Assembly (NCBI GenBank): GCA_022703445.1
Contig: JAKLDR010000016.1
Coordinates: forward strand, 1-60,121
Direction of reading: 5' to 3'
DNA length: 60,121 nucleotides
DNA from: Planctomycetota bacterium
Lineage (GTDB): Bacteria; Planctomycetota; SZUA-567; JAKLDR01
Notes under the pieces: generated by a model
Told to the model about the DNA's origin: nothing
What the model saw: the letters and a program-made list of their open reading frames with translations, nothing else
Databases searched by the model: none
Shown: in pieces, positions 32,957 to 43,960 of the stretch
Numbering within the stretch: the stretch's first letter is position 1
How the letters are laid out: each line of letters starts with the position of its first letter
Made by a program: the position numbers and the translations under genes

Positions 32957-34240
32957 ATGCGCCGCGGCATAGCCGCCGATCCGGACACCATGAGGCGCCT
33001 GCTCCGCGCCTCCGGCGAGCTGCGCCTGGTGGTCCTGGGCACGAGCATGGCTCCGACCATCCGGCCCGGAGACTCGGTGGTCATGCGGCCGCTGGACGGC
33101 GCGCCGCGGGTGGGCGACGTGGTGGTCTACGCCCGCGGCGGGCGGCTCTGGTGCCACCGGGTGCTGCTCCCGGGGCGCGCGACCATCACCAAGGGCGACG
33201 CCCGCGGCCGGCCCGATCCGCCGGTGGCCACCGCCGACCTGATCGGCCGGGCCATCGCTCTGCAGCGCGGCAGCCGGATCATCGAACTGCACGGCCTGGG
33301 CTCGCGGCTGGCCGGGCTGGCGCTCAACCTCTCCGCCCCGGCCGCGGCGCTGGGCCGCCGGCTGGCCCGCCGGATCGGCGTGGCCCCGGCCCCGGAGCGC
33401 CCGGCCCGGCACCTGCTCGTCGCCGGATTCGACGTCGAGGTGACCGGCCCGCGCCGGCTGCTGCTGCCCGTCCCGGCCAAGCGCGGGCGCCCCAGCATCC
33501 GCCCGGACTTCCGCATCGACCTGGAACTGCGCCAGGGGGCCACCACCGGCGGGCGCTTCGGGCTGGTGGAGAGCGGCCGGCGCGGGCGCTTCCGGCTGAC
33601 CGCCCCCGCCGCGGTGGCCCACTTCGACATGGCCGACCGTCACTGCCGGGCGGAGGTGGTCCACGGCGCCGAGGACGCGGGCGTGACCGCGGTGCTGCGC
33701 GCCGCCGGGCTGCTGATGGTCGCGGCCGGCGGCGGGCTGGCCCTGCACGCCTCGGCCGTCCGCCACGGCGGCCGGGCCTACCTGTTCTCGGGGCCGAGCG
33801 GCGCCGGCAAGTCCACGGCCATGCGCCGGGCCTGCGAGGCCGGGGCCGAGCCGCTGGCCGACGACCTGGTGCTGCTGCGCCGGGACGGCTCCGGCGGAAC
33901 CGGGGACCCCGCCGGCGGCCGCGGAGACCGCTGGCTGGCCTGGGGGCCGCCGACCGAGCCCAATCTGGCGGAGCACGTCGGACAGGACCGCCGGGGCACG
34001 CCGGTCGCGGCGCTGCTGGTGCCGGCCCGCGGCGAGGAGCTCGACGTCCGCCCGCTCTCCGCCGCCGGCTGGACCGTCCTGGCCGGGACCTTCCCGCCGG
34101 CTCCCGGCGCGCCGGGGGACCAGGGGACGCTCGAGCTGCTGGCCGAGCTGGCCGAGGGCCTGCCGCGCCGTCTGGTGTTCTTCGCCGACCGGCCCGGGGC
34201 CCTCGCCGAGCTTTTCCGGCGCCTGGAGGAGGGGGCTTGA
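32957..34240 (+). CDS. Fusion of SipW-like S26 peptidase domain and HprK-like P-loop kinase
   Basis: 427 residues. N-terminal domain (~15-105): 'VVLGTSMAPTIRPGDSVVM' carries the catalytic Ser, 'GDVVVYARGG', and 'WCHRVLLPGRATITKGDA', with His where bacterial LepB has Lys; this Ser-His arrangement is that of SipW/ER-type signal peptidases. No membrane anchor precedes it. C-terminal domain (from ~150): HPr-kinase-like, with 'LHASAVRHGGRAYLFSGPS' and 'GPSGAGKST' (P-loop), then 'PLADDLVLLRRDG'. HprK-like kinases of this type occur in exopolysaccharide and PqqD-type systems of unknown chemistry. The stop (34240) overlaps the TTG start of the next gene (TTGA). Confidence 0.83.
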   Translation: MRRGIAADPDTMRRLLRASGELRLVVLGTSMAPTIRPGDSVVMRPLDGAPRVGDVVVYARGGRLWCHRVLLPGRATITKGDARGRPDPPVATADLIGRAIALQRGSRIIELHGLGSRLAGLALNLSAPAAALGRRLARRIGVAPAPERPARHLLVAGFDVEVTGPRRLLLPVPAKRGRPSIRPDFRIDLELRQGATTGGRFGLVESGRRGRFRLTAPAAVAHFDMADRHCRAEVVHGAEDAGVTAVLRAAGLLMVAAGGGLALHASAVRHGGRAYLFSGPSGAGKSTAMRRACEAGAEPLADDLVLLRRDGSGGTGDPAGGRGDRWLAWGPPTEPNLAEHVGQDRRGTPVAALLVPARGEELDVRPLSAAGWTVLAGTFPPAPGAPGDQGTLELLAELAEGLPRRLVFFADRPGALAELFRRLEEGA

Positions 34241-35349
34241 GCCGCACCGGGCTGCTGGCGCTCAGCGCAGCCTGGCTCGGCCGTCCCGGCGCCGAGGCTC
34301 CGGCGCGGGAGGCGCTGGCCGCCGCCGGCCGTTCGCCCGGCGACTTCGCCCGCGAGGCCCGCGCCCACCGGCTGGCCGCCGTGGCCCTGGAGGCCGCCGA
34401 AAGGCTCGGGGCCGGCGACGGGCTCCTCGCCGCGCTGCGGGCCGAGGCCCGCGCGGGGACGGCGCGGGCCCTGGCCCTGGAGTCCGCCGCCGCGGAGCTG
34501 GCCGCCGCCGCGAAGGAGCGGGGGCTGTCGGCCGCGCACCTCAAGGGCCCGGCCGTCGACCGCTCCTACGGGGGCCGCGGCCTGCGGACCTACGACGACC
34601 TCGACCTGCTGGTGCCCGCCGGACAGCTCGATCTCTGGCGCGGGTGCCTGCGCGACCTGGGCTACGCCCCGGCCAACCCCGCCGGCGGCAGCTGGCTCCG
34701 CGGGCCGGCCGAGACCGTCGACCTGCACTCCGGGGCGCTGGAGCTCTACGGGCTGATCGACGTGCCCGAGGCGCTCCGCCCGGTGCGCCTCGACCCGGAG
34801 GCCATGCTCTCGCGCGCCAAGCCGGATGCGAACCTGGCCTTCCCGGCGCTGGCCGCCGAGGACGAACTGCTCCTGGCAGCCTGCCACGGCTTCGGCCTGC
34901 ACCTCTACGCCCGGCTGGTCTGGGCGCTGGACGTGGCCGTGCTGGCCGCCGCTGCGGACCCCGCGCGGGTGGAGGCGGCCGCCGCGGAGTCCGGCGCCGG
35001 CCGGATGCTCTTCCACGCGGCCGACGCCGCCCGGCGACTGGGACTGCTGGGCGAGCCGCCCGGTGGCTGGCTGGAGCGGCTGCGCCCGGGGAGGCTCGGG
35101 CGCCTGGAGCGCCTGGTGGTCGGCCGGATCGTCCGCGGAGACGCCCCGGAGCGCGCCGAGTTCCTGCTGGCCCTGGCCATGCCCGCGCCGGCCGGCTTCA
35201 GGCGGGCCATGCTCCGGCGCGCCCTGCTGCCCTCCGGGAGGCGGCTGCGGCAATCAGCCGCCGCCGCGCGCGGGCGCGGGCGCCTGGGCGGAGCGCTGCG
35301 GCACTTCGGGCAGCTGGCCCGGATCGGGGCCCTGGCCCTCTGGGGCTAG
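34237..35349 (+). CDS. Nucleotidyltransferase-like protein (PF14907-type)
   Basis: 370 residues from a TTG that overlaps the previous stop, so translation is coupled. A helical N-terminus is followed by 'LSAAHLKGPAVDRSYGGRGL' and 'RTYDDLDLLVP', the 'KG...Y...R.y.DlDlLV' signature of the uncharacterised nucleotidyltransferase family PF14907 (NTP_transf_5). The DxD metal site (DDLDLL) is intact. The C-terminal half is helical ('EDELLLAACHGFGLHLYARL'). The same partner pair (HprK-like kinase plus PF14907 protein) is seen next to exopolysaccharide or exosortase loci in other bacteria, so a role in modifying an envelope polymer or peptide is plausible. The stop codon lies in the terminator-like hairpin. 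Confidence 0.82.
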   Translation: MSRTGLLALSAAWLGRPGAEAPAREALAAAGRSPGDFAREARAHRLAAVALEAAERLGAGDGLLAALRAEARAGTARALALESAAAELAAAAKERGLSAAHLKGPAVDRSYGGRGLRTYDDLDLLVPAGQLDLWRGCLRDLGYAPANPAGGSWLRGPAETVDLHSGALELYGLIDVPEALRPVRLDPEAMLSRAKPDANLAFPALAAEDELLLAACHGFGLHLYARLVWALDVAVLAAAADPARVEAAAAESGAGRMLFHAADAARRLGLLGEPPGGWLERLRPGRLGRLERLVVGRIVRGDAPERAEFLLALAMPAPAGFRRAMLRRALLPSGRRLRQSAAAARGRGRLGGALRHFGQLARIGALALWG

Positions 35350-35372
35350 CAGGCCGTTGAAAACGGCCTGCT
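35348..35372 (+). terminator. Perfect hairpin at the end of the kinase/nucleotidyltransferase operon
   Basis: AGCAGGCCGTT and AACGGCCTGCT form an 11-bp stem around GAA; the left arm includes part of the TAG stop codon. No T-run follows, so it may act as a weak terminator, an mRNA stabiliser, or be a repeat of the flanking family. Confidence 0.5.
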
Positions 35373-35495
35373 GGAGCAGGCGAGCAGGAGAACAGGTGAT
35401 CAGGTGAGGTCGAAGAGCGTAAGGACAACGAGGATGGTGGCACCACGAGCCGCTGCTCGACTGCGGTCTACTGCTCCACTGCTCTCCTGCTCTGT
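35373..35495. repeat. GGAGCAG-type imperfect inverted repeat
   Basis: The left part (35373-35396, GGAGCAGGCGAGCAGGAGAA) and the right part (35471-35495, CTGCTCCACTGCTCTCCTGC) are reverse-complementary in their repeat words. The whole gap before the glycosyltransferase is occupied by this element. Confidence 0.5.
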
Positions 35496-35534
35496 CCCAC
35501 GAAATCAATGGTCACGGACCGCCAGCCGTCAGCC

Positions 35535-36674
35535 ATGCGCGTCCTGACCTTCATCAACTGGCTGGGCCGCGGCGGGGTCGAGACCGCCCTGCTGCGCTGT
35601 CTGCCGCACCTGCGCGCGCGCGGGGTGGAGGTCGACGTCTGCTGCCAGGGAGCACGGCGCGAGCTGGACGCCGACTTCGAGCGCTGCGGCTGCCGGATCC
35701 TGCGCATCCGCAAGTGCGCCGTGCCGCTGGAGACCGCCTGGCGGCTGGGCCGGGAGCTCCGCGCCGGCCGCTGGGACCTGCTGCACTCGCGGATGGGGGC
35801 GACCTCCGGCGGGGCCGTCCTGGCCGCCGCCCGCTGCGGCCTGCCCGCGGTGGTCTCGGTCCACAACGGCCCGGCCGCGACGCTCCCGGCGTGGGCGGCC
35901 CGGCCGGGGCTGGCCGCCGTCCGCCGGGCGTGGCTCGGGTGGCACCGCCGGCTGATCGACCGGCACGCCCGGATGATCGTGGGCCACTCCGCGGCCAACC
36001 TCGACGCCTTCGCCCCCGGCTGGCGCTCCGACCCCGCGCGCCACCGGGTGGTGGTCAACGGCGTGGAGCCCCCCGGGCCGGGCCCGGACCGGGAGGAGTG
36101 CCGCCGGCTGCTGGGGCTCGAGCCGGGGCGGCTGGCGGTGCTGCACGTCGGGTCCTTCAAGCCGCAGAAGAACCACGCCGGGCTGCTGGCGGCCTTCGCG
36201 CGCGTCCGGGAGAGCGAGCCGGGAGCGCTGCTGCTGCTGGCCGGCGCCGGCCCGGAGCGCGGGGAGCGCTACGCGCGCCGGGCGGTCCGGGCCATGGGCC
36301 TGGACGGCGCGGTGCGCTTCGAGGGGCCTCTCGCCGGGCTCCGCGCTCACTACCTGGCCGCCGACGTGCTGCTGGCCCCCTCGACGCTGGAGGGCTTCGG
36401 CAACGCCCTGGCCGAGGCCCAGGCGGCCGGGCTGCCGGCGGTGGCCTCGGACATCCCCGCCCACCGCGAGTCGGTGGCGCCGGGCGCGCAGCGCTTCCTC
36501 TTCCCGCTGCCGGACTACGCCCGGGCCGCGGAGCTGGTCCTGGAGCAGGCCCGGGCGGCGCGCGCCGGGAGGAACCCCTGGGTCGCCGAGGCCGGCGAGC
36601 ACGTCCGCGCGCACTTCACCGTCGAGCGCATGGCCGGGGAGCTGGCCGACATATACGGCGAGGTGGCGGGTTGA
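35535..36674 (+). CDS. GT4-family glycosyltransferase
   Basis: About 379 residues from the ATG at 35535 (ATG-like alternatives at 35508). It has a GT-B layout: N-terminal Rossmann 'VLTFINWLGRGGVETALLR' and a C-terminal domain with 'LHVGSFKPQKNHAGLLAAFA' and the donor-site 'STLEGFGNALAEAQAAGLP' (E-x7-E), diagnostic of glycosyltransferase family 4. It probably adds a sugar to a lipid-linked or envelope glycan; the specific sugar is not readable. Its position downstream of the kinase/nucleotidyltransferase pair suggests an exopolysaccharide or glycoconjugate locus. No sugar-nucleotide synthesis genes lie nearby. Confidence 0.9.
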   Translation: MRVLTFINWLGRGGVETALLRCLPHLRARGVEVDVCCQGARRELDADFERCGCRILRIRKCAVPLETAWRLGRELRAGRWDLLHSRMGATSGGAVLAAARCGLPAVVSVHNGPAATLPAWAARPGLAAVRRAWLGWHRRLIDRHARMIVGHSAANLDAFAPGWRSDPARHRVVVNGVEPPGPGPDREECRRLLGLEPGRLAVLHVGSFKPQKNHAGLLAAFARVRESEPGALLLLAGAGPERGERYARRAVRAMGLDGAVRFEGPLAGLRAHYLAADVLLAPSTLEGFGNALAEAQAAGLPAVASDIPAHRESVAPGAQRFLFPLPDYARAAELVLEQARAARAGRNPWVAEAGEHVRAHFTVERMAGELADIYGEVAG

Positions 36675-36991: not shown

Positions 36992-38410
36992 TTGTCCAAG
37001 AGCAGCAACCCGCACCTCGGGCGCACCGGCCTGTCCCTGCTGATCTGGGTGGCGCTGGCCGCCGCCTTCCTGTCCCTCGACCGGGCCTTCCCGGACCGCT
37101 GGGTGCTCCCCGGCCTGGGCACGCCCCGCAGCCAGGCTCCGGCCAGGCCGCCGGCAGCCCCGGCGGCCACCGCCGCGCCAGCGGCCCCCGCGGCGACCGC
37201 CGTCGGAACCGAGGAGCCGCCGACCGCCCCCCGGGGCCTGCCCGTGCTCCGCCTGCTCGGGATCATCGCGGCGATCCTCGCGGTCTTCGAGCTGCTGACC
37301 TTCCTCAACCAGCTCCTGCTGATCCGCCGGAAGAAGCCGGCCGCCGAGGGCGCCATGGTCGGCAAACTCTACCGCCTGGCCGCGGCGCTGGTGGTGGTGC
37401 TGGCCCTGGCCTACGGCTTCGGCGTGCTCGGCGCCTTCGGAACGGCCTTCGCGGCCTTCGGCGGCATGCTGCTCGGCTGGAGCCTGCAGGCCCCGGTCAG
37501 CGGCTTCGCCGCCTGGGTGCTGGTCAGCCTCAAGCGGCCCTTCCGCCCGGGCGACCGCATCCAGATGCCGCAGCTGGGCCTGACCGGCGACGTCAAGGAC
37601 GTGGGCCTGATGTACACCACCCTCGACCAGGTCGGCGGCACCATCGGCAGCGAGGAGGCCGTCGGCCGGCACATCCTGGTGCCCAACGCCATGCTCTTCA
37701 GCCAGGTGGTCATCAACTACACCGTCACCCAGGAGGCCGCCTACATGCTGGACGAGGCGGTCATCCGCATCACCTTCGACTCCGACTGGGAGGAGGCCGA
37801 GCGCATCCTGCTGGGCGCGGCCAAGGAGGTCACCGGCGACATCATCGCCGCCACCGGCGTGCCGGCCTACATCCGCTCGGACATCTACGACTACGGCATC
37901 TACCTGCGGCTGCGCTACCAGACGCGGGTCAAGGACCGCGCGGAGCTCTCCTACCTCATCCAGAAGAAGATCTTCGACGCCGTCCGGAAGACACCCACGG
38001 TGGACATGGCCATCCCGTTCATCTACTCCTACCGCGCGGGGCTGGAGCGCAAGGAGTCCGACGCGGCCGACGCGGCCGACGCCGCGGCCGCCCGCGAGGC
38101 GCCCCCCGCCGACAAGGAGGCCCGCAACATCCACCAGATCAAGATCGACCTGGTCAATCCGGGCGACGTGGCCATCGAGCTGCAGGACGTGGAACAGGTG
38201 GCCAGGAGCATCGCCGCCCACGGGCTGCTCCAGCCCATCATGGTGGTCAAGGCTCCGAGCGGCGATAACTTCGACCTGCTGGCCGGCCACCTGCGCCTGG
38301 CCGCCTGCAAGAAGCTCGGCTGGAAGGCCATCCCGGCGGTGGTCCTGGACAGCACCAGGGCTCCGGCGGCGCCTCCACCGGCGGGGGCGCCGGCGGCAAA
38401 GAAGCCGTAA
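36992..38410 (+). CDS. MscS mechanosensitive channel fused to a ParB-N-like domain
   Basis: 472 residues from a TTG preceded by GGGGAG; no in-frame ATG is closer. One membrane helix (~13-33), an Ala/Pro linker, a second helix near 90-115, then the MscS core: pore helix 'GTAFAAFGGMLLGWSLQAP' and 'SGFAAWVLVSLKRPFRPGD', followed by the beta domain ('VPNAMLFSQVVINYTV'). After a charged Ala/Asp-rich linker comes a ParB-N/sulfiredoxin-like domain (~378-455): 'QVARSIAAHGLLQPIMVVK' and 'DLLAGHLRLAACKKLGWKA', the ParB 'SI..hGLLqPi...aG.rR..A' pattern, but with GHLRLAA instead of GERRxRA. Downstream genes start after 31, 5 and 3 nt, so this heads a four-gene operon. Confidence 0.85.
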   Translation: MSKSSNPHLGRTGLSLLIWVALAAAFLSLDRAFPDRWVLPGLGTPRSQAPARPPAAPAATAAPAAPAATAVGTEEPPTAPRGLPVLRLLGIIAAILAVFELLTFLNQLLLIRRKKPAAEGAMVGKLYRLAAALVVVLALAYGFGVLGAFGTAFAAFGGMLLGWSLQAPVSGFAAWVLVSLKRPFRPGDRIQMPQLGLTGDVKDVGLMYTTLDQVGGTIGSEEAVGRHILVPNAMLFSQVVINYTVTQEAAYMLDEAVIRITFDSDWEEAERILLGAAKEVTGDIIAATGVPAYIRSDIYDYGIYLRLRYQTRVKDRAELSYLIQKKIFDAVRKTPTVDMAIPFIYSYRAGLERKESDAADAADAAAAREAPPADKEARNIHQIKIDLVNPGDVAIELQDVEQVARSIAAHGLLQPIMVVKAPSGDNFDLLAGHLRLAACKKLGWKAIPAVVLDSTRAPAAPPPAGAPAAKKP

Positions 38411-38441
38411 CGGCAGCCATCAAGGTTGCCAGGAGGACAGC

Positions 38442-39266
38442 ATGTTGTCCTACGAGGCCCTGACCCTGCGGAATCAGGGCTACATCTCCGCTGGACTCCA
38501 GGCGAAGATCCGCGCGACGCGACTGCTGGTGGCCGGCTGCGGGCTAGGCTCGATGACCACGGAACTCGCCGCCCGCACCGGGTTCGAGCGTTTCACCCTG
38601 GTCGACGCCGACGAGGTCGCCGGGCACAACCTCAACCGCCAGGGCTACGCCGCCGACGACGTGGGCCGGCCCAAAGTCGAGGCCCTGGCGGCCAGGTTGC
38701 GCGCCGTGAACCCGGGCGTGCAGGTCGAGGCCCGCAAATCCTGGGTCAAGGCCGACAACGCCGCCGGGCTGGTGGCCGGCTGCGACCTGGTGCTCGACAC
38801 CATCGACTTTCTGGACCTGCCGGCGATCATCGCGCTGCACGACCATGCCCGGCTCCAGGGCCGGCCGCTGGTCTCGGCCTTCTCGGCCGGGTGGGGCGCG
38901 GTGGCCGCGGTCTTCACGCCGCAGAGCGGCACGCTCCGGGGGCTCTGCGGCCTGCCCGAGTCCGGCTCGGTGGCGGGGGCCTCCTACCCGGAGGCTTTCG
39001 GGCGGATGTTGGCCGGCATTGCCACCCAACTGCCGGCCGACTTCGTGGCAGTGACCCGCCACACGCTCATGGAAATGGCCGACGGCCGCCCCTGCCCCGC
39101 CCCACAGTTGGCCGCCGGGGCTGCCGCCACCGCAGCGCTGATGGTCGCCCTGGCGGTCAGGCTGCTCGCCGGGCAACCGGTGACCGTGGCCCCCAAGATG
39201 CTTCTGGTCGATATGGCCGGGCTGGCCTGCGGCCCGGGAATAAGGGTGGTCAGCGCGGAGGGCTGA
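38442..39266 (+). CDS. ThiF/E1-like adenylyltransferase
   Basis: 274 residues with the E1-superfamily fold: N-terminal 'LRNQGYIS' (arginine-finger region), nucleotide loop 'LLVAGCGLGSMTTELA', 'LVDADEVAGHNLNRQGY' (Asp and Arg that bind ATP/Mg), 'GRPKVEALAARL' (catalytic Lys) and 'LVLDTIDFLDLPA' (Asp). All ATP-site residues seem present. There are no CxxC zinc motifs and only scattered Cys, and no Ubl domain or ubiquitin-like partner is next door. E1-like enzymes adenylate a C-terminal or carboxyl group. Its position directly before two FeeM-like acyltransferases suggests it activates a carboxyl substrate for them or modifies their product (inference). Confidence 0.85.
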   Translation: MLSYEALTLRNQGYISAGLQAKIRATRLLVAGCGLGSMTTELAARTGFERFTLVDADEVAGHNLNRQGYAADDVGRPKVEALAARLRAVNPGVQVEARKSWVKADNAAGLVAGCDLVLDTIDFLDLPAIIALHDHARLQGRPLVSAFSAGWGAVAAVFTPQSGTLRGLCGLPESGSVAGASYPEAFGRMLAGIATQLPADFVAVTRHTLMEMADGRPCPAPQLAAGAAATAALMVALAVRLLAGQPVTVAPKMLLVDMAGLACGPGIRVVSAEG

Positions 39267-39271
39267 GCGAG

Positions 39272-41506
39272 ATGCCCGCCCCAGCCTTCGATTACCGCAT
39301 CGCCGAGACCCGCGAGGACATCGAGGCCGCGGTGCGGCTGGTCTACCGCAACTACGTAGAGCTCAAGTACTGCAACCTGAACCGCTTCGGGGTTCACTTC
39401 TACCTTTACGACGTGCTGCCGGAGACGCGCACCCTGGTGGCCTCCGACGGCGACCGGGTGGTGGCCACGCTGACGCTGGTCTTCGACTCGCCGCTGGGGC
39501 TGCCCTCCGGGAAGCTCTACGCGGCAGAGCTCGAGGCGCTGCGCGGCGCCGGGCGCCGGCTGGTGGAGGTCTCCAAGCTGGCCGTGGACCGCGGGCTCGG
39601 CGCCCGTGGTCTGGCCGTGCTCAAGGGGCTCTTCCGGCTGGCCTGGCTGGTCTCCGGGCCGGTGCGAGGCTCGACCGACTTCCTGATCATGGTCGAGCCG
39701 CACCATGAGCGCTTCTATGCACGGAGCCTGCTGTTCGAGCGGGCCGGGGAGCTCAAGCCCGACCCGGAGGCGGCCGATGCGCCGAGCGTCTTGCTGCGGC
39801 TGCGGCTGGCGGAGTGCCCGGAACGCTACCGCGCGGCCTTCGGCGAGGAGCCGAAGGAAGCCAATCCCTACTGGTACTTTGTCAAGTCGCCCGAGGTGGC
39901 CCAGACCGAGACCGCCGCCCGCGCTGCCGATGGGCGGCTCTCGGATATGAACCGGCTGCTGGAGACCGGCCGCAGACTGCCCTCGCCCACGCCTGCCGAA
40001 CGGCGCTATATGGACTACCGGCTCTTCTCCATCGCCTTCGTCACCGACAAGACCTGCAAGGAGGCCGAGCGCCGCGCCCGCAAGGGGCTATTCCGCGAGG
40101 AGATCGAGGCCTACGACCGGCTGCTGGCCGCCCTGCCCCCAGACTACGCCCCGGAGCGGCGGGCAAGCATCCTCCTGGACCTGGCCACTGCCGCCTGGCA
40201 CTGCGGGCTCTACGAGCGGTCCCTGGCCCTGGCCCTGGCGGTGCGCGGGCTGGCCTCGAGCGCCGACCTCCAGGCCCAGGGCCGCGCCGCGGCCGGGGTG
40301 GCTCTCTACTTCCTGGGCCGGGGCAACGAAGCCGTCCAGGAACTGTCCGAGGGGCTGGCCCTCCCCGGCGTCTCCGGGTTCGAGCGCGCCCGGCTGCTGC
40401 GCTGTGACGGCCGGCTGGCCATCGAGCGCTTCGACCTGCCAGCTGCGCGGCGGCGCTTCGCCGAGGCGAGCGCGGCGCTCTCCTCGACGGGCAGTTCGCC
40501 GGAGGCCGACAAGACTCGCGCCATGCTGGCCCACAATCAATGGCTGTTGGAGACCAAGTGCGGCGACTTCCGGGCCGCCGGCCAGGCGCTCCGCGAGGGC
40601 GCCCCGTTCCTGAAGGCCGCCACCCCCCCGCTGATCATCCAGTACCACATCGCCTGGGCCGCGGTCGAGAGTGTCCTGGGCCGGCCGCGCGAGGCCCTGG
40701 CTCACAGCGAACTCGGCCTGCGCCGGATCTCCTCCGAAGACGACCCTTTCAACGCCGCGGTGCTGGCCAACAGGTGTGCCGCCGCCCACCTGTCCCTGGG
40801 CGAACTGGAGGCCGCCCGCCGCGCCGCCGACCAGAACATGGCCCTGGCGGTCCGCTCCCATTACCCGGGCGTGATCGCCGACGCCCTGGCCGTCTCCGCG
40901 ACCCTGCTAATCGCCGAAGACCAGGTCTCCCGGGCGCGGGCCGAGTTGGCCGCCGGCCTGGAGCGGCTGGGCGACACACTCCTGCGCAGATCCCAGGCTT
41001 GCATACTCAGTATGCAGGCACACCTGGCCCGTGTCGAGAAGGAATGGGACCGCGCACGCGAGCTTCTCGATGCCGTCGAGAAGGAGGTCCAGGAGGTGCC
41101 CGAGTACCGGGCCTACGCGCGCTACCAGCGAGTGGAGGGGGAACTCCTGGCCGGGGACCTGCTCCAGGCGCGGCAGCTGGCCGAGGGGTTACCCCGGCCC
41201 GAGGAACTCCCGGGCTCCGCCGCCTACGAAGCCGGCTGGAAGCTGCTGACCGGCGTCATGGCGGCGGCCGACGGCCGCGAGGACGAGGCCCTGGTGCTGG
41301 TCGAGGCCTCCCTGGCCATCGACCGCGCCGGCGACGCCCGGCACGACCTGGCCAATACGGCCCTCAAGGCGGCCGAGGCCCTCCAGGCCTGCACGCTGGA
41401 TGACAGGGTTCCCCGGGTCATGGAGCTCTGCCGCCGAACCGCAGCGGAGGTCTGCGCGACGACCCGGCTGCCGCACTGCGCACGGCGGCTCAGGGAGCTG
41501 GGCTGA
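39272..41506 (+). CDS. FeeM-like N-acyltransferase fused to a TPR-type helical domain, copy 1
   Basis: 744 residues. Residues ~1-200 match the core of N-acyl amino acid synthase FeeM (LuxI/GNAT fold): 'AVRLVYRNYVELKYCNLN', 'VVATLTLVFDSPLGLPSGKL', 'RRLVEVSKLAVDRGLGARGL' and 'FLIMVEPHHERFYARSLLF'. FeeM uses acyl-ACP to acylate an amino-acid amine. Residues ~260-740 are short Ala/Leu-rich helical pairs of TPR type. No signal peptide or membrane segment is visible. It follows the ThiF gene by 5 nt. The next gene is a close paralogue; the last ~22 residues ('TTRLPHCARRLRELG') are identical between them. Confidence 0.82.
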   Translation: MPAPAFDYRIAETREDIEAAVRLVYRNYVELKYCNLNRFGVHFYLYDVLPETRTLVASDGDRVVATLTLVFDSPLGLPSGKLYAAELEALRGAGRRLVEVSKLAVDRGLGARGLAVLKGLFRLAWLVSGPVRGSTDFLIMVEPHHERFYARSLLFERAGELKPDPEAADAPSVLLRLRLAECPERYRAAFGEEPKEANPYWYFVKSPEVAQTETAARAADGRLSDMNRLLETGRRLPSPTPAERRYMDYRLFSIAFVTDKTCKEAERRARKGLFREEIEAYDRLLAALPPDYAPERRASILLDLATAAWHCGLYERSLALALAVRGLASSADLQAQGRAAAGVALYFLGRGNEAVQELSEGLALPGVSGFERARLLRCDGRLAIERFDLPAARRRFAEASAALSSTGSSPEADKTRAMLAHNQWLLETKCGDFRAAGQALREGAPFLKAATPPLIIQYHIAWAAVESVLGRPREALAHSELGLRRISSEDDPFNAAVLANRCAAAHLSLGELEAARRAADQNMALAVRSHYPGVIADALAVSATLLIAEDQVSRARAELAAGLERLGDTLLRRSQACILSMQAHLARVEKEWDRARELLDAVEKEVQEVPEYRAYARYQRVEGELLAGDLLQARQLAEGLPRPEELPGSAAYEAGWKLLTGVMAAADGREDEALVLVEASLAIDRAGDARHDLANTALKAAEALQACTLDDRVPRVMELCRRTAAEVCATTRLPHCARRLRELG

Positions 41507-41509
41507 CCT

Positions 41510-43738
41510 GTGGCCGACTTCATCTACCGCATCGCCGAAACCCGCGAGGACGTCGAGGGCGCGGTGCGCCTCGTCTACCGCAACTACATCGAGCTGGGCT
41601 ACTGCCGCCTCAATCGCTTCGGGGTGCACTTCTACCTGTACGACGTGCTGCCGGAGACGCGCACCCTGGTGGCGCTGCACGACGGCCGGGTGGTGGCCAC
41701 GCTCACGCTGGTGTTCGACTCGCCGCTGGGGCTGCCCTCCGGCAAGCTCTACGCCGCGGAGCTCGGCGTCCTGCGCAGCGGGGGGCGCCGCCTGGTCGAG
41801 GTTTCCAAGCTGGCCGTGGACCGCGACCTGGGCGCGCGCGGTCTGGCCGTGCTCAAGGGGCTCTTCCGGCTGGGCTGGCTGGCCTCCGCCCGGGTGCGGG
41901 GCTCGACCGACTTCGTGATCATGGTCGAGCCGCACCATGAGCGCTTCTATGCCCGGAGCCTGCTCTTCGAGCGGGCCGGGGAGCTCAAACCCGATCCGGA
42001 GGCCAGGGACGCGCCCAGCCTGCTCCTGCGGCTGCGGCTGGCGGAGGGTCCGGAGCGCTACCGTGCGGCCTTCGGCGAGGAGCCGAAGGAAGCCAATCCC
42101 TACTGGTACTTTGTCCAGGCGCCCGAGGTGGCCGAGACCGAGGCCGCCGCCCGCGCCGCCGACGGGCGGCTCTCGGACATGAACCGGCTCCTGGAGACCG
42201 GCTGCCAGCTGCCATCGCCCACGCCGGCCGAGCGGCGCTACATGGACTACCGGCTCTTCTCCATAGCCTTCGTCACCGACAAGACCTGCCAGGAGGCCGA
42301 GAAGCGCGCCCGGCACGGCCTCTTCCGCGAAGAGATCGAGACCTACGACCGGCTGCTGGCCGCCCTGCCCCCCGACTACGCCCCGGAGAGGCGGGCGGAC
42401 ATCTTCATCGACATCGCCAAGGCCGCATGGTACGGCGGACTGTATCAGCGCGCCGTGGACCTGGCCCGGGCCGCGCGGGAACTGGCGGTCGGCCCCGGCA
42501 TCAAGGCGGCCAGCCATTGCGTGGCCGCGATGGGCCTCCACCACCTGGGCCGCGGCGGCGAGGCCCTCGGCGAGCTCCGCGAGGGCCTGGAGCTGCCGGG
42601 CATATCGGCCCGGGATCGGGGGCGGCTTCTGCAGATCGACGGGCGGTTGGCCATCGATCGTTTCGACCTGGCCACCGGCCGGCGCCGCCTGGACGAGGCC
42701 CGCGAGGCCGCCGCCGGCCTGCCGCGCGACCCGGCCGACGACCGGCTCCGCGCGCTGATCTTCCACAACCGGTGGGTGCTGGAGTTCAAGTCCGGCGACC
42801 TGGTCGCCGCCCGCGAAGCGCTCCGCTCGGGCGTGCCGTTCCTGGAATCGACGGGCAGCGCGCTGCTGATGCAGTACCACCAGGCCTGGAGCCGGACGGA
42901 GATGGCTGCGGGCCGGCCGCGGGAGGCCCTGGCCCATGCGGAGATGGGCCTGCGCCAGATCGATCCGGCTTCGGCCCCCTTCAATGCGGCGGTCATGGTC
43001 CACGCCCGCGGCGAGGCCCACCTGGCGCTGGGCGAGCTCGAGGCCGCCATGCGGGACTCCCAGGAGGAGATGGAACTGGCCGCGAGCTCCAAGTTCCCAG
43101 TGGTTATGGTGGACGCGCTGGGCCAGTCCTCGGCCGTGCTGGCTGCCGAGGACCGGCTGGCGGACGCCCGCAGGGAGCTCGAGGCCGGGCTGGAGCGCAT
43201 CGGCGACGGGCTACCGGTGCGGGCGGAATACGCCAGGCTCCAGGCCCGGGCCTGCCTCTCCGGTCTGGAGCGCGACTGGCCGGCGGCCCGCGAGCTCCGC
43301 GAACTCGGCGAGCAACGCGCTGAAGGCGTGCCCGAGTACAAAGCCTACGCGCGCTGCGAGCGTGTGCAGGCCGAGCTTCTGGCCGGGGACCTCCCCGCCG
43401 CACGCCGGCTGGCCGCCAAGATGGTCCTGCCTGAGAGGCTGCGCGGCTTCGTCATCTACGAGGCGGGCTGGAAGACCGTGCAGGCGATCCTGGCCGCCGC
43501 CGACGGCGACGAGCCCCGGGCCTTGGCGCTCGCCGGGGAGGCGCTGGCCGTCCACCGCTCCGGCGAGGCCCTGCGCGACCTGGCTGAAGCCACCATCGCG
43601 ATGGCCGAGGCGCTCAGGAACTGCCAACTGGCCGGCAAGTGCCCGAGTCTGTACGGGTTCCTGAGGAATACGGCGGCGGAGGTCTGCGCGACGACCCGGC
43701 TGCCGCACTGCGCGCGGCGGCTCAGGGAGCTGGGCTGA
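41510..43738 (+). CDS. FeeM-like N-acyltransferase fused to a TPR-type helical domain, copy 2
   Basis: 742 residues from a GTG at 41510, 3 nt after the first copy. Its FeeM-like domain is nearly the same as copy 1 through ~270 residues ('ETRTLVALHDGRVVATLTL', 'GLPSGKLYAAELGVLRSGG', 'EPHHERFYARSLLFERAGE'), but the TPR-like middle (about residues 290-715) has diverged strongly, and similarity returns at the last ~22 residues. It therefore probably acts on the same type of acyl donor but binds a different partner. It is followed by a decayed third copy. Confidence 0.82.
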   Translation: MADFIYRIAETREDVEGAVRLVYRNYIELGYCRLNRFGVHFYLYDVLPETRTLVALHDGRVVATLTLVFDSPLGLPSGKLYAAELGVLRSGGRRLVEVSKLAVDRDLGARGLAVLKGLFRLGWLASARVRGSTDFVIMVEPHHERFYARSLLFERAGELKPDPEARDAPSLLLRLRLAEGPERYRAAFGEEPKEANPYWYFVQAPEVAETEAAARAADGRLSDMNRLLETGCQLPSPTPAERRYMDYRLFSIAFVTDKTCQEAEKRARHGLFREEIETYDRLLAALPPDYAPERRADIFIDIAKAAWYGGLYQRAVDLARAARELAVGPGIKAASHCVAAMGLHHLGRGGEALGELREGLELPGISARDRGRLLQIDGRLAIDRFDLATGRRRLDEAREAAAGLPRDPADDRLRALIFHNRWVLEFKSGDLVAAREALRSGVPFLESTGSALLMQYHQAWSRTEMAAGRPREALAHAEMGLRQIDPASAPFNAAVMVHARGEAHLALGELEAAMRDSQEEMELAASSKFPVVMVDALGQSSAVLAAEDRLADARRELEAGLERIGDGLPVRAEYARLQARACLSGLERDWPAARELRELGEQRAEGVPEYKAYARCERVQAELLAGDLPAARRLAAKMVLPERLRGFVIYEAGWKTVQAILAAADGDEPRALALAGEALAVHRSGEALRDLAEATIAMAEALRNCQLAGKCPSLYGFLRNTAAEVCATTRLPHCARRLRELG

Positions 43739-43739
43739 T

Positions 43740-43960
43740 CGCGGCCGACTTCACCTGTCGCATCGCCGAGACCCTCAAGGGCGTCGAGGGCACAGTCCGG
43801 CTGGTCTAACGCAACTGCATCGAGCTTGGCTGCTGCCACCTCAACCGCTTCGGCGGTTCACTCCAGCCTTTATGACGTGCTGCCGGAGACGCGCACCCTG
43901 GCGGCGCTCGGAGGCGCCGGCGCGCCGGCGCCGGCCGCGCCGCCGGCGAAGAAACCGTAG
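43740..43960 (+). pseudogene. Remnant of a third FeeM-like copy
   Basis: Translation after the second copy gives 'ADFTCRIAETLKGVEGTVRL', then an in-frame stop (TAA at 43807-43809), then 'RNCIELGCCHLNRFGG', a frameshift, and 'YDVLPETRTLAAL', i.e. the first ~55 codons of the FeeM-like genes with disruptions. It runs into a low-complexity GAPAPAAPPAKKP tail ending at TAG 43960 that resembles the Pro/Ala/Lys tail of the MscS-ParB protein; this tail match is weak because the region is low complexity. Confidence 0.7.

What the first reader, a model, noticed from the sequence alone, without database searches (positions are those of the whole stretch)
36992..43738. Compact operon joining an MscS-ParB fusion, a ThiF/E1-like enzyme and two FeeM-like N-acyltransferase/TPR proteins
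Seen: four plus-strand genes with gaps of 31, 5 and 3 nt and one candidate promoter. Known: FeeM-family enzymes acylate amino-acid amines from acyl-ACP, and E1-like enzymes adenylate carboxyl groups. Inferred: the E1-like enzyme may activate a carboxyl (for example the acyl-amino-acid product or a peptide C-terminus) for coupling, giving an acylated small molecule or protein tag, while the channel-ParB fusion links it to membrane state. I do not know this exact four-gene combination as a described system. Comparative surveys of E1-like proteins have noted other acyltransferase neighbourhoods, but I cannot verify whether this one is included.
Basis: partly seen in the sequence, partly recalled or inferred. 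Interest (0 to 1): 0.85.

Follow-up and report, generated by a model that had tools for sequence, protein, structure and literature searches.

The report
AclA-like ring-closing lipid-signal operon
A bacterium known from a draft genome, likely a planctomycete, carries one E1-like enzyme gene directly beside two genes whose products have an N-acyl-amino-acid-synthase domain; the E1-like enzyme's closest solved relative is AclA, so the set is predicted to make a ring-closed fatty molecule that would act as a chemical signal.

The parts
36992..38410 (+). MscS-type channel fused to a ParB N-terminal domain (472 aa, TTG start); probably a neighbour, not a core part
   Evidence: PF00924 E 3.4e-10, PF02195 E 3.5e-10; widespread fusion family; not linked to ThiF/FeeM in the other class genomes that hold it
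38442..39266 (+). AclA-like ThiF/E1-type adenylating enzyme (274 aa), predicted cyclase of N-acyl amino acids
39272..41506 (+). FeeM-type N-acyl amino acid synthase with C-terminal TPR solenoid, copy 1 (744 aa)
   Evidence: PF21926 19-177; model matches FeeM 2g0b TMt 0.77-0.84 and TPR solenoids; 2g0b by profile, E 1.9e-10
41510..43738 (+). FeeM-type N-acyl amino acid synthase with C-terminal TPR solenoid, copy 2 (742 aa, GTG start)
   Evidence: PF21926; 66% identical to copy 1
43739..43960 (+). decayed remnant: start of a third FeeM with in-frame stops, then a tail resembling the end of MscS-ParB (APAPAAPPAKKP against APAAPPPAGAPAAKKP; low-complexity, so the second part is weak)
   Evidence: search hit 43744-43857, 55% identity, TAA inside; three-frame translation

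Best explanation
The core of the operon is a ThiF gene whose closest solved relative is AclA beside two FeeM-TPR genes, and it likely makes a ring-closed N-acyl amino acid that would serve as a small lipophilic signal. Steps, all inferred for these proteins: (1) a FeeM domain transfers a fatty acyl group from acyl-ACP or acyl-CoA to the alpha-amine of an amino acid; (2) the ThiF enzyme adenylates the free carboxyl with ATP; (3) a nucleophile in the same molecule displaces AMP and closes the ring, most likely a side-chain amine giving a lactam, as the name of AclA and its signal class suggest; (4) the product, shaped like an acyl-homoserine lactone, leaves the cell; (5) the TPR tail of the synthase senses a ligand or partner and tunes the synthase, the role that the N-terminal half of the sigma-54 activators beside the genome's other FeeM genes would play. 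Shown: the genes, the domains, the sequence match to AclA, the conserved ThiF-FeeM pairing, and at the paralogues the activator pairing and sigma-54-like sites. The folds are confident predictions. MscS-ParB is taken as a neighbour. I give 'ThiF ring-closes the FeeM product' about 0.62 and this lactam version of it 0.37 (lowered from 0.4 on rechecking the tree).
For: ThiF-FeeM adjacency: 43 of 54 window-type loci from a GTDB scan hold FeeM, 36 within 300 bp; of the 11 misses, L054 has a FeeM-cluster fragment at its contig edge. In the class, 12 of 15 ThiF places have FeeM within about 4 kb. FeeM and a class-II ThiF share one 596-aa frame in this genome (C308), and NCBIfam PRK14852 matches FeeM in its first part and ThiF in its middle part. 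The closest solved structure is AclA with substrate. The 10 Bacteroidota loci of the scan carry ThiF with a LuxR-type gene (10 of 10) and a FeeM-like acyltransferase (9 of 10), by BLAST clusters with one member of each checked by Pfam. A tree joins them to the window type (SH-aLRT 81) apart from the class-II ThiFs. ACLs are N-acyl-cyclolysine signals of Bacteroidota (PMC13419125, passages). Nitroreductases: 2 matches among 113 proteins, the set being 111 neighbours plus 2 positive controls. Nine of 11 activators of one family lie at FeeM genes; 7 of 9 have a sigma-54-like site toward FeeM against 2 of 51 control regions.
Against: No chemistry was tested. That AclA makes acyl-cyclolysine is inferred from its name and the review; the Nature 2025 paper is not held. 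In both trees the AclA group falls inside the window type but nearer to other members than to the window: outside a 38-row group with support 90, and on the other side of a 100% branch that puts the window, 7 other window-type rows, class II and the other ThiFs together. The Bacteroidota branch is long (2.9). Positions 133 and 145-148 are H, S, A, F, S in the window against D, H, P, Y, N in the AclA group, and the window type has a near-invariant CPAP motif (Cys218) that the AclA group lacks, so substrate and ring may differ. The acyltransferases of Bacteroidota are only weakly FeeM-like: my FeeM profile finds 1 of 10. No regulator or exporter lies next to the window operon. The activators' N-halves show TPR matches by Pfam only weakly and in one of six scanned; hhalign links them to the synthase tail at 94.6%, but an unrelated TPR protein also scores 73 and 65%.
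Confidence: 0.37

Rival explanations
1. Saturated oxazolone synthase: FeeM N-acylates an amino acid and ThiF closes an oxazolone (azlactone) through the amide oxygen, as TyzB and TrzS do, but without the desaturase.
For: TyzABC and TrzAS are acyltransferase + ThiF-like cyclase + flavin desaturase (PMC10404671, abstract and two sections; PMC12856293, abstract and two sections); TrzS cyclises before it desaturates, so a saturated ring is possible; most adenylation residues are shared by both ThiF classes; in the tree the window lies on the class-II side of a 100% branch.
Against: The window ThiF does not pass PRK08223 (96 bits, cut-off 266), which four class-II ThiFs do (320-353 bits), and no nitroreductase was found among 111 neighbours.
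Confidence: 0.25
2. Ligase, not cyclase: ThiF activates the N-acyl amino acid and joins it to a second amine or alcohol, making an aminolipid or lipid-modified molecule for the envelope.
For: Some loci of this ThiF type carry MacB/LolE-type permeases and LolA-like proteins; FeeM loci of the class carry permeases that match DevC below its cut-off; Massilia loci carry PEP-CTERM proteins, the PEP-CTERM system acyltransferase TIGR03694 and PrsT; all are envelope functions. MccB and PaaA (ligase-type E1 relatives, as I recall) are among the structural matches.
Confidence: 0.2
3. Sulfur-carrier or ubiquitin-like E1: ThiF adenylates a small protein, and FeeM acylates something unrelated.
For: ThiF/MoeB fold and adenylation residues.
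Against: No carrier domain in the operon; no CXXC motif in the protein (sequence); FeeM as the usual partner.
Confidence: 0.05
4. A decaying locus with no present function.
For: A third FeeM remnant follows the operon, and the second ThiF+FeeM-TPR copy on contig C304 is broken.
Against: The four window frames are intact, with homologues of 65-86% identity on metagenome contigs.
Confidence: 0.04

Closest known systems
AclA / N-acyl-cyclolysine (ACL) signalling of Bacteroidota (PDB 9egb-9egd; Linares-Otoya et al., Nature 2025, known to me only through passages of PMC13419125 and the PDB title)
   Same: ThiF enzyme of the same fold, matched nearly full length; FeeM-like acyltransferase as neighbour in the Bacteroidota loci
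   Different: No LuxR neighbour; two FeeM copies with TPR tails; different pocket-region residues and a CPAP motif; not AclA's nearest kin within the subfamily
Acyl-oxazolone pathways TyzABC, TrzAS and OxzAB
   Same: N-acyl amino acid synthase plus ThiF-type enzyme in one cluster
   Different: No flavin desaturase; ThiF apart from the PRK08223-type ThiFs that stand beside such desaturases
Stieleriacine/kyonggic acid clusters (NasY + ThiF + nitroreductase; PMC12479983, abstract and one section)
   Same: Planctomycete NAS and ThiF clusters, several NAS copies in one locus
   Different: No nitroreductase or methyltransferase here; TPR fusion
FeeM (PDB 2g0b) and the PEP-CTERM system acyltransferase TIGR03694
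   Same: Catalytic domain of the two synthases; two TIGR03694 genes stand beside this ThiF type in the Massilia locus L060
   Different: About 500-residue TPR tail
MscS-ParB fusion family
   Same: First gene of the array (119 of the 120 listed hits carry both domains)
   Different: In the class genomes other than the own it stands apart from ThiF/FeeM

Membership tests
AclA/ACL system | ThiF-fold enzyme homologous to AclA over its full length | tested here: met
AclA/ACL system | Member of the same clade as AclA to the exclusion of other ThiFs | tested here: inconclusive
   Joined with SH-aLRT 81, but AclA group nearer to other window-type rows; a 100% branch puts the window on the class-II side
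AclA/ACL system | Partner FeeM-like acyltransferase | tested here: met
   Two PF21926 genes directly downstream, gaps 5 and 3 nt
AclA/ACL system | Adjacent LuxR-type regulator, as in 10 of 10 Bacteroidota loci | tested here: not met
   Neighbours are a glycosyltransferase, MscS-ParB and an alpha/beta hydrolase
AclA/ACL system | N-acyl-cyclolysine as product | not testable with these tools
   Needs expression and mass spectrometry
Oxazolone (Tyz/Trz/Oxz) pathway | N-acyl amino acid synthase gene in the cluster | tested here: met
   PF21926
Oxazolone (Tyz/Trz/Oxz) pathway | Flavin desaturase of the nitroreductase superfamily, adjacent or fused | tested here: not met
   None among the nine window proteins scanned; among 113 proteins only two nitroreductase matches, as many as the positive controls put in
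Oxazolone (Tyz/Trz/Oxz) pathway | ThiF of the TyzB/TrzS/OxzB cluster | tested here: inconclusive
   Not PRK08223 (96 bits, cut-off 266), weak to PRK07877/Rv1355c (40.5 bits); apart from class II in the trees; TyzB, TrzS and OxzB sequences themselves were not compared
ThiF/MoeB sulfur-carrier E1 | Small carrier protein partner and CXXC zinc motifs | tested here: not met
   No carrier domain in the operon; no CXXC in the 274-residue sequence
FeeM N-acyl amino acid synthase | PF21926 over its cut-off and FeeM fold | tested here: met
   132.8 and 129.4 bits against 27; 2g0b best Foldseek match of copy 1
FeeM N-acyl amino acid synthase | N-acylation of an amino acid | not testable with these tools
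   No assay

The most novel reading that the evidence does not exclude
A LuxI/LuxR-like signalling world built on another chemistry: this planctomycete runs about ten parallel FeeM-made signals, each sensed by its own TPR/sigma-54 activator, and the window operon is a variant in which the sensor solenoid is fused to the synthase itself and an AclA-type ThiF ring-closes the signal.
Probability: 0.22. Interest if true: 0.88.

Novelty: new variant of a known kind. Interest (0 to 1): 0.62.

Why it matters
A 2025 paper reports N-acyl-cyclolysine signalling as widespread in Bacteroidota (seen through PMC13419125). ThiF enzymes of the subfamily in which AclA's group falls, each with a FeeM partner, are found here in Planctomycetota, Kiritimatiellota, Bdellovibrionota, Myxococcota, Pseudomonadota and Clostridium, so ring-closed acyl amino acids may reach far beyond one phylum. 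The paralogue loci give ready tests: nine FeeM-activator pairs, seven with sigma-54-like sites toward the synthase, in a phylum whose cell-cell signalling is, to my knowledge, little known.

Tried and rejected
Rejected or weakened: (a) MscS-ParB as a functional part: 7 of 29 class genomes hold the fusion (G001 only a fragment), and only in the own genome is it on a contig with ThiF/FeeM; the 9-15 kb fetched around it in five other genomes show no ThiF or FeeM; none of the 54 GTDB loci has the full fusion, two (L042, L080) have a match to its MscS part. Against this rejection: two metagenome contigs (18650 and 76838 bp) appear to hold all three families, judged by equal contig lengths only. (b) BLAST similarity of the TPR tail to the activators' N-halves: none (best E 0.028); hhalign gave 94.6% with a TPR control at 65-73%, so it is suggestive only. 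(c) A sigma-70 or sigma-54 promoter for the window operon: none found. (d) Papers: FeeM/ThiF, E1-like/ThiF/nitroreductase, oxazolone/quorum sensing, exosortase/FeeM, 9EGB codes, ThiF/quorum sensing, cyclolysine, Tenacibaculum, ThiF+exosortase, synthase/sigma-54 (87). By the titles and abstract starts listed (capped lists), none describes a TPR-FeeM/ThiF operon or FeeM-activator pairs. Four papers were read in part: PMC10404671, PMC12856293, PMC12479983, PMC13419125.

Limits: the sigma-54 consensus and weights were recalled, and the threshold of 18.2 was set after seeing the nine scores, before the controls. My nitroreductase profile rested on two seeds and found nothing but them, hence the Pfam/NCBIfam check, which covered 111 of the 185 neighbours listed (260-560 aa, within 2.5 kb, 47 of 54 loci); searches do not name the two matching members, which I take to be the two controls because the best E-values equal theirs. 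Of the 65 scan loci I counted 54 as window type (L039-L092) and 10 as Bacteroidota; L102, a ThiF fragment at a contig end without FeeM, was left out. The trees left out six rows (four duplicates, the broken C304 gene, a distant second hit in L089) and, by a coverage cut, L102 and L103. Six of the nine FeeM-linked activators were checked by Pfam, two only by alignment, and the C113 one is cut by the contig end. The MoeB arginine-finger and zinc-site roles are recalled.
Full report
What is there. The window is contig C68 of a 6.0 Mb, 81% complete draft genome. Two same-class genomes share contig lengths with records titled 'Planctomycetota bacterium', so the host is likely a planctomycete. Four plus-strand genes lie at 36992-43738 with gaps of 31, 5 and 3 nt: MscS-ParB, ThiF, and two FeeM genes with long tails. 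The AlphaFold2 model of the first FeeM protein (pLDDT 91.3) has a FeeM domain (best match 2g0b, TMt 0.77-0.84) and a TPR solenoid of about 500 residues, similar to APC/C subunits and to Rap of phage Phi3T among others. A decayed third FeeM start follows.

ThiF and FeeM belong together. A scan of GTDB genomes with an alignment of this ThiF subfamily gave 65 loci: 54 of the window type (L039-L092), 10 of Bacteroidota, and L102, a fragment at a contig end that I left out. Of the 54, 43 hold a FeeM gene by my profile, 36 within 300 bp; the 11 without are L044, L045, L047, L054, L058, L064, L080, L084, L085, L087 and L091. L054 has a FeeM-cluster fragment at its contig edge and L084 is 3.8 kb long. 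In the 29 genomes of the class, 15 ThiF places pass 1e-15 (the two halves of the C304 gene counted once); 12 have a FeeM place within about 4 kb. The exceptions are a contig end (G007:C105), one at 7 kb (G006:C18) and one without FeeM (G002:C96). Four other ThiF-family places of the own genome, on three contigs, have no FeeM nearby.

How it likely works. In Mycobacterium, TyzA or TrzA N-acylates an amino acid and the ThiF-like TyzB or TrzS cyclises it with ATP (PMC10404671, PMC12856293, read in part). In planctomycetes, NasY, ThiF and nitroreductase genes go with stieleriacines, though no oxazolone was seen there (PMC12479983, one section). By this logic FeeM makes the N-acyl amino acid and ThiF activates and ring-closes it. 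I favour an AclA-like lactam over an oxazolone because of the match to AclA and the missing desaturase, but residues in the substrate region differ between the window type and AclA, so the ring is open. All chemical steps are inferred.

Regulation at the paralogues. The genome holds 13 FeeM places and 11 places of one family of sigma-54 activators with a helical N-terminal half; 9 of the 11 lie at a FeeM gene, one (C280) is at a contig start and one (C312) has no FeeM on its contig list. Of the nine upstream regions, 7 score 18.2 or more for a sigma-54-like site pointing at FeeM; the two on C304 do not (16.7, 16.0); 0 of 9 reach it toward the activator; 2 of 51 control intergenic regions and 4% of random windows do. 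FeeM domains are also fused to radical SAM proteins twice. In the sister family f3, FeeM/ThiF loci carry extended ECF sigma factors. The window operon has neither; its TPR tail matches the activators' N-half by hhalign at 94.6% against 73 and 65% for an unrelated TPR protein, while Pfam sees weak TPR matches in one of six activators scanned. The second ThiF+FeeM-TPR copy, on C304, stands 40 bp downstream of an activator gene whose ATPase motifs are altered and whose C-terminal part is missing, and is itself broken.

MscS-ParB. It belongs to a large fusion family (853 hits; 119 of the 120 listed carry both domains). In the class, 7 of 29 genomes hold the fusion (one a fragment); only the own genome has it on a contig with ThiF/FeeM. 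Two metagenome contigs may repeat the linkage (equal contig lengths). I treat it as a lineage-specific neighbour.

Verdict. New here: an AclA-like ThiF with TPR-fused, duplicated FeeM in a likely planctomycete, the spread of this ThiF subfamily with FeeM over several phyla, and the FeeM-activator pairs.

Noticed in passing
G000 contigs C20, C35, C113, C293, C294, C304 (2), C308 (2); loci L027, L029, L033-L035, L037, L038: Nine FeeM genes each beside a paralogous sigma-54 activator (helical N-half, AAA+, winged helix in most), 7 of 9 with a sigma-54-like site toward FeeM; looks like parallel synthase-regulator pairs.
   Followed up: partly
window 43739-43960: Third FeeM start with in-frame stops, running into a tail like the end of MscS-ParB: possibly a trace of an older tandem duplication of the operon.
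   Followed up: partly
L027 16462-18550 (G000:C304): Second ThiF+FeeM-TPR copy, broken in several places, 40 bp downstream of an altered sigma-54 activator gene.
   Followed up: partly
L033 5878-7803, L034 5464-9111: FeeM domains fused behind a radical SAM and a B12-binding radical SAM protein, each near a divergent activator.
   Followed up: no
L029 3063-6532: FeeM + class-II ThiF + L-2-amino-thiazoline-4-carboxylic acid hydrolase family (PF14196) + methyltransferase: a cluster with a ring-opening-type hydrolase.
   Followed up: no
window 32957-36674: A protein with weak S24 and ScmC matches, NTP_transf_5 and a glycosyltransferase lie just upstream; the Massilia locus L060 has HprK-related kinase A next to NTP_transf_5 and an XrtA/PEP-CTERM export gene near its ThiF.
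   Followed up: partly
Massilia-type loci, e.g. L060, L070: This ThiF type sits beside the PEP-CTERM/exosortase system acyltransferase TIGR03694 (two genes tested, L060), PrsT (tested in L070; its BLAST cluster is in 10 loci) and PEP-CTERM proteins; 9 of the 113 proteins scanned carry a PEP-CTERM motif. The search for ThiF+exosortase gave one paper, not on this (listing).
   Followed up: partly
L041, L075, L078, L157, L159-L163, L165, L168: FeeM/ThiF loci of the sister family carry ECF sigma factors with a long C-terminal extension.
   Followed up: partly
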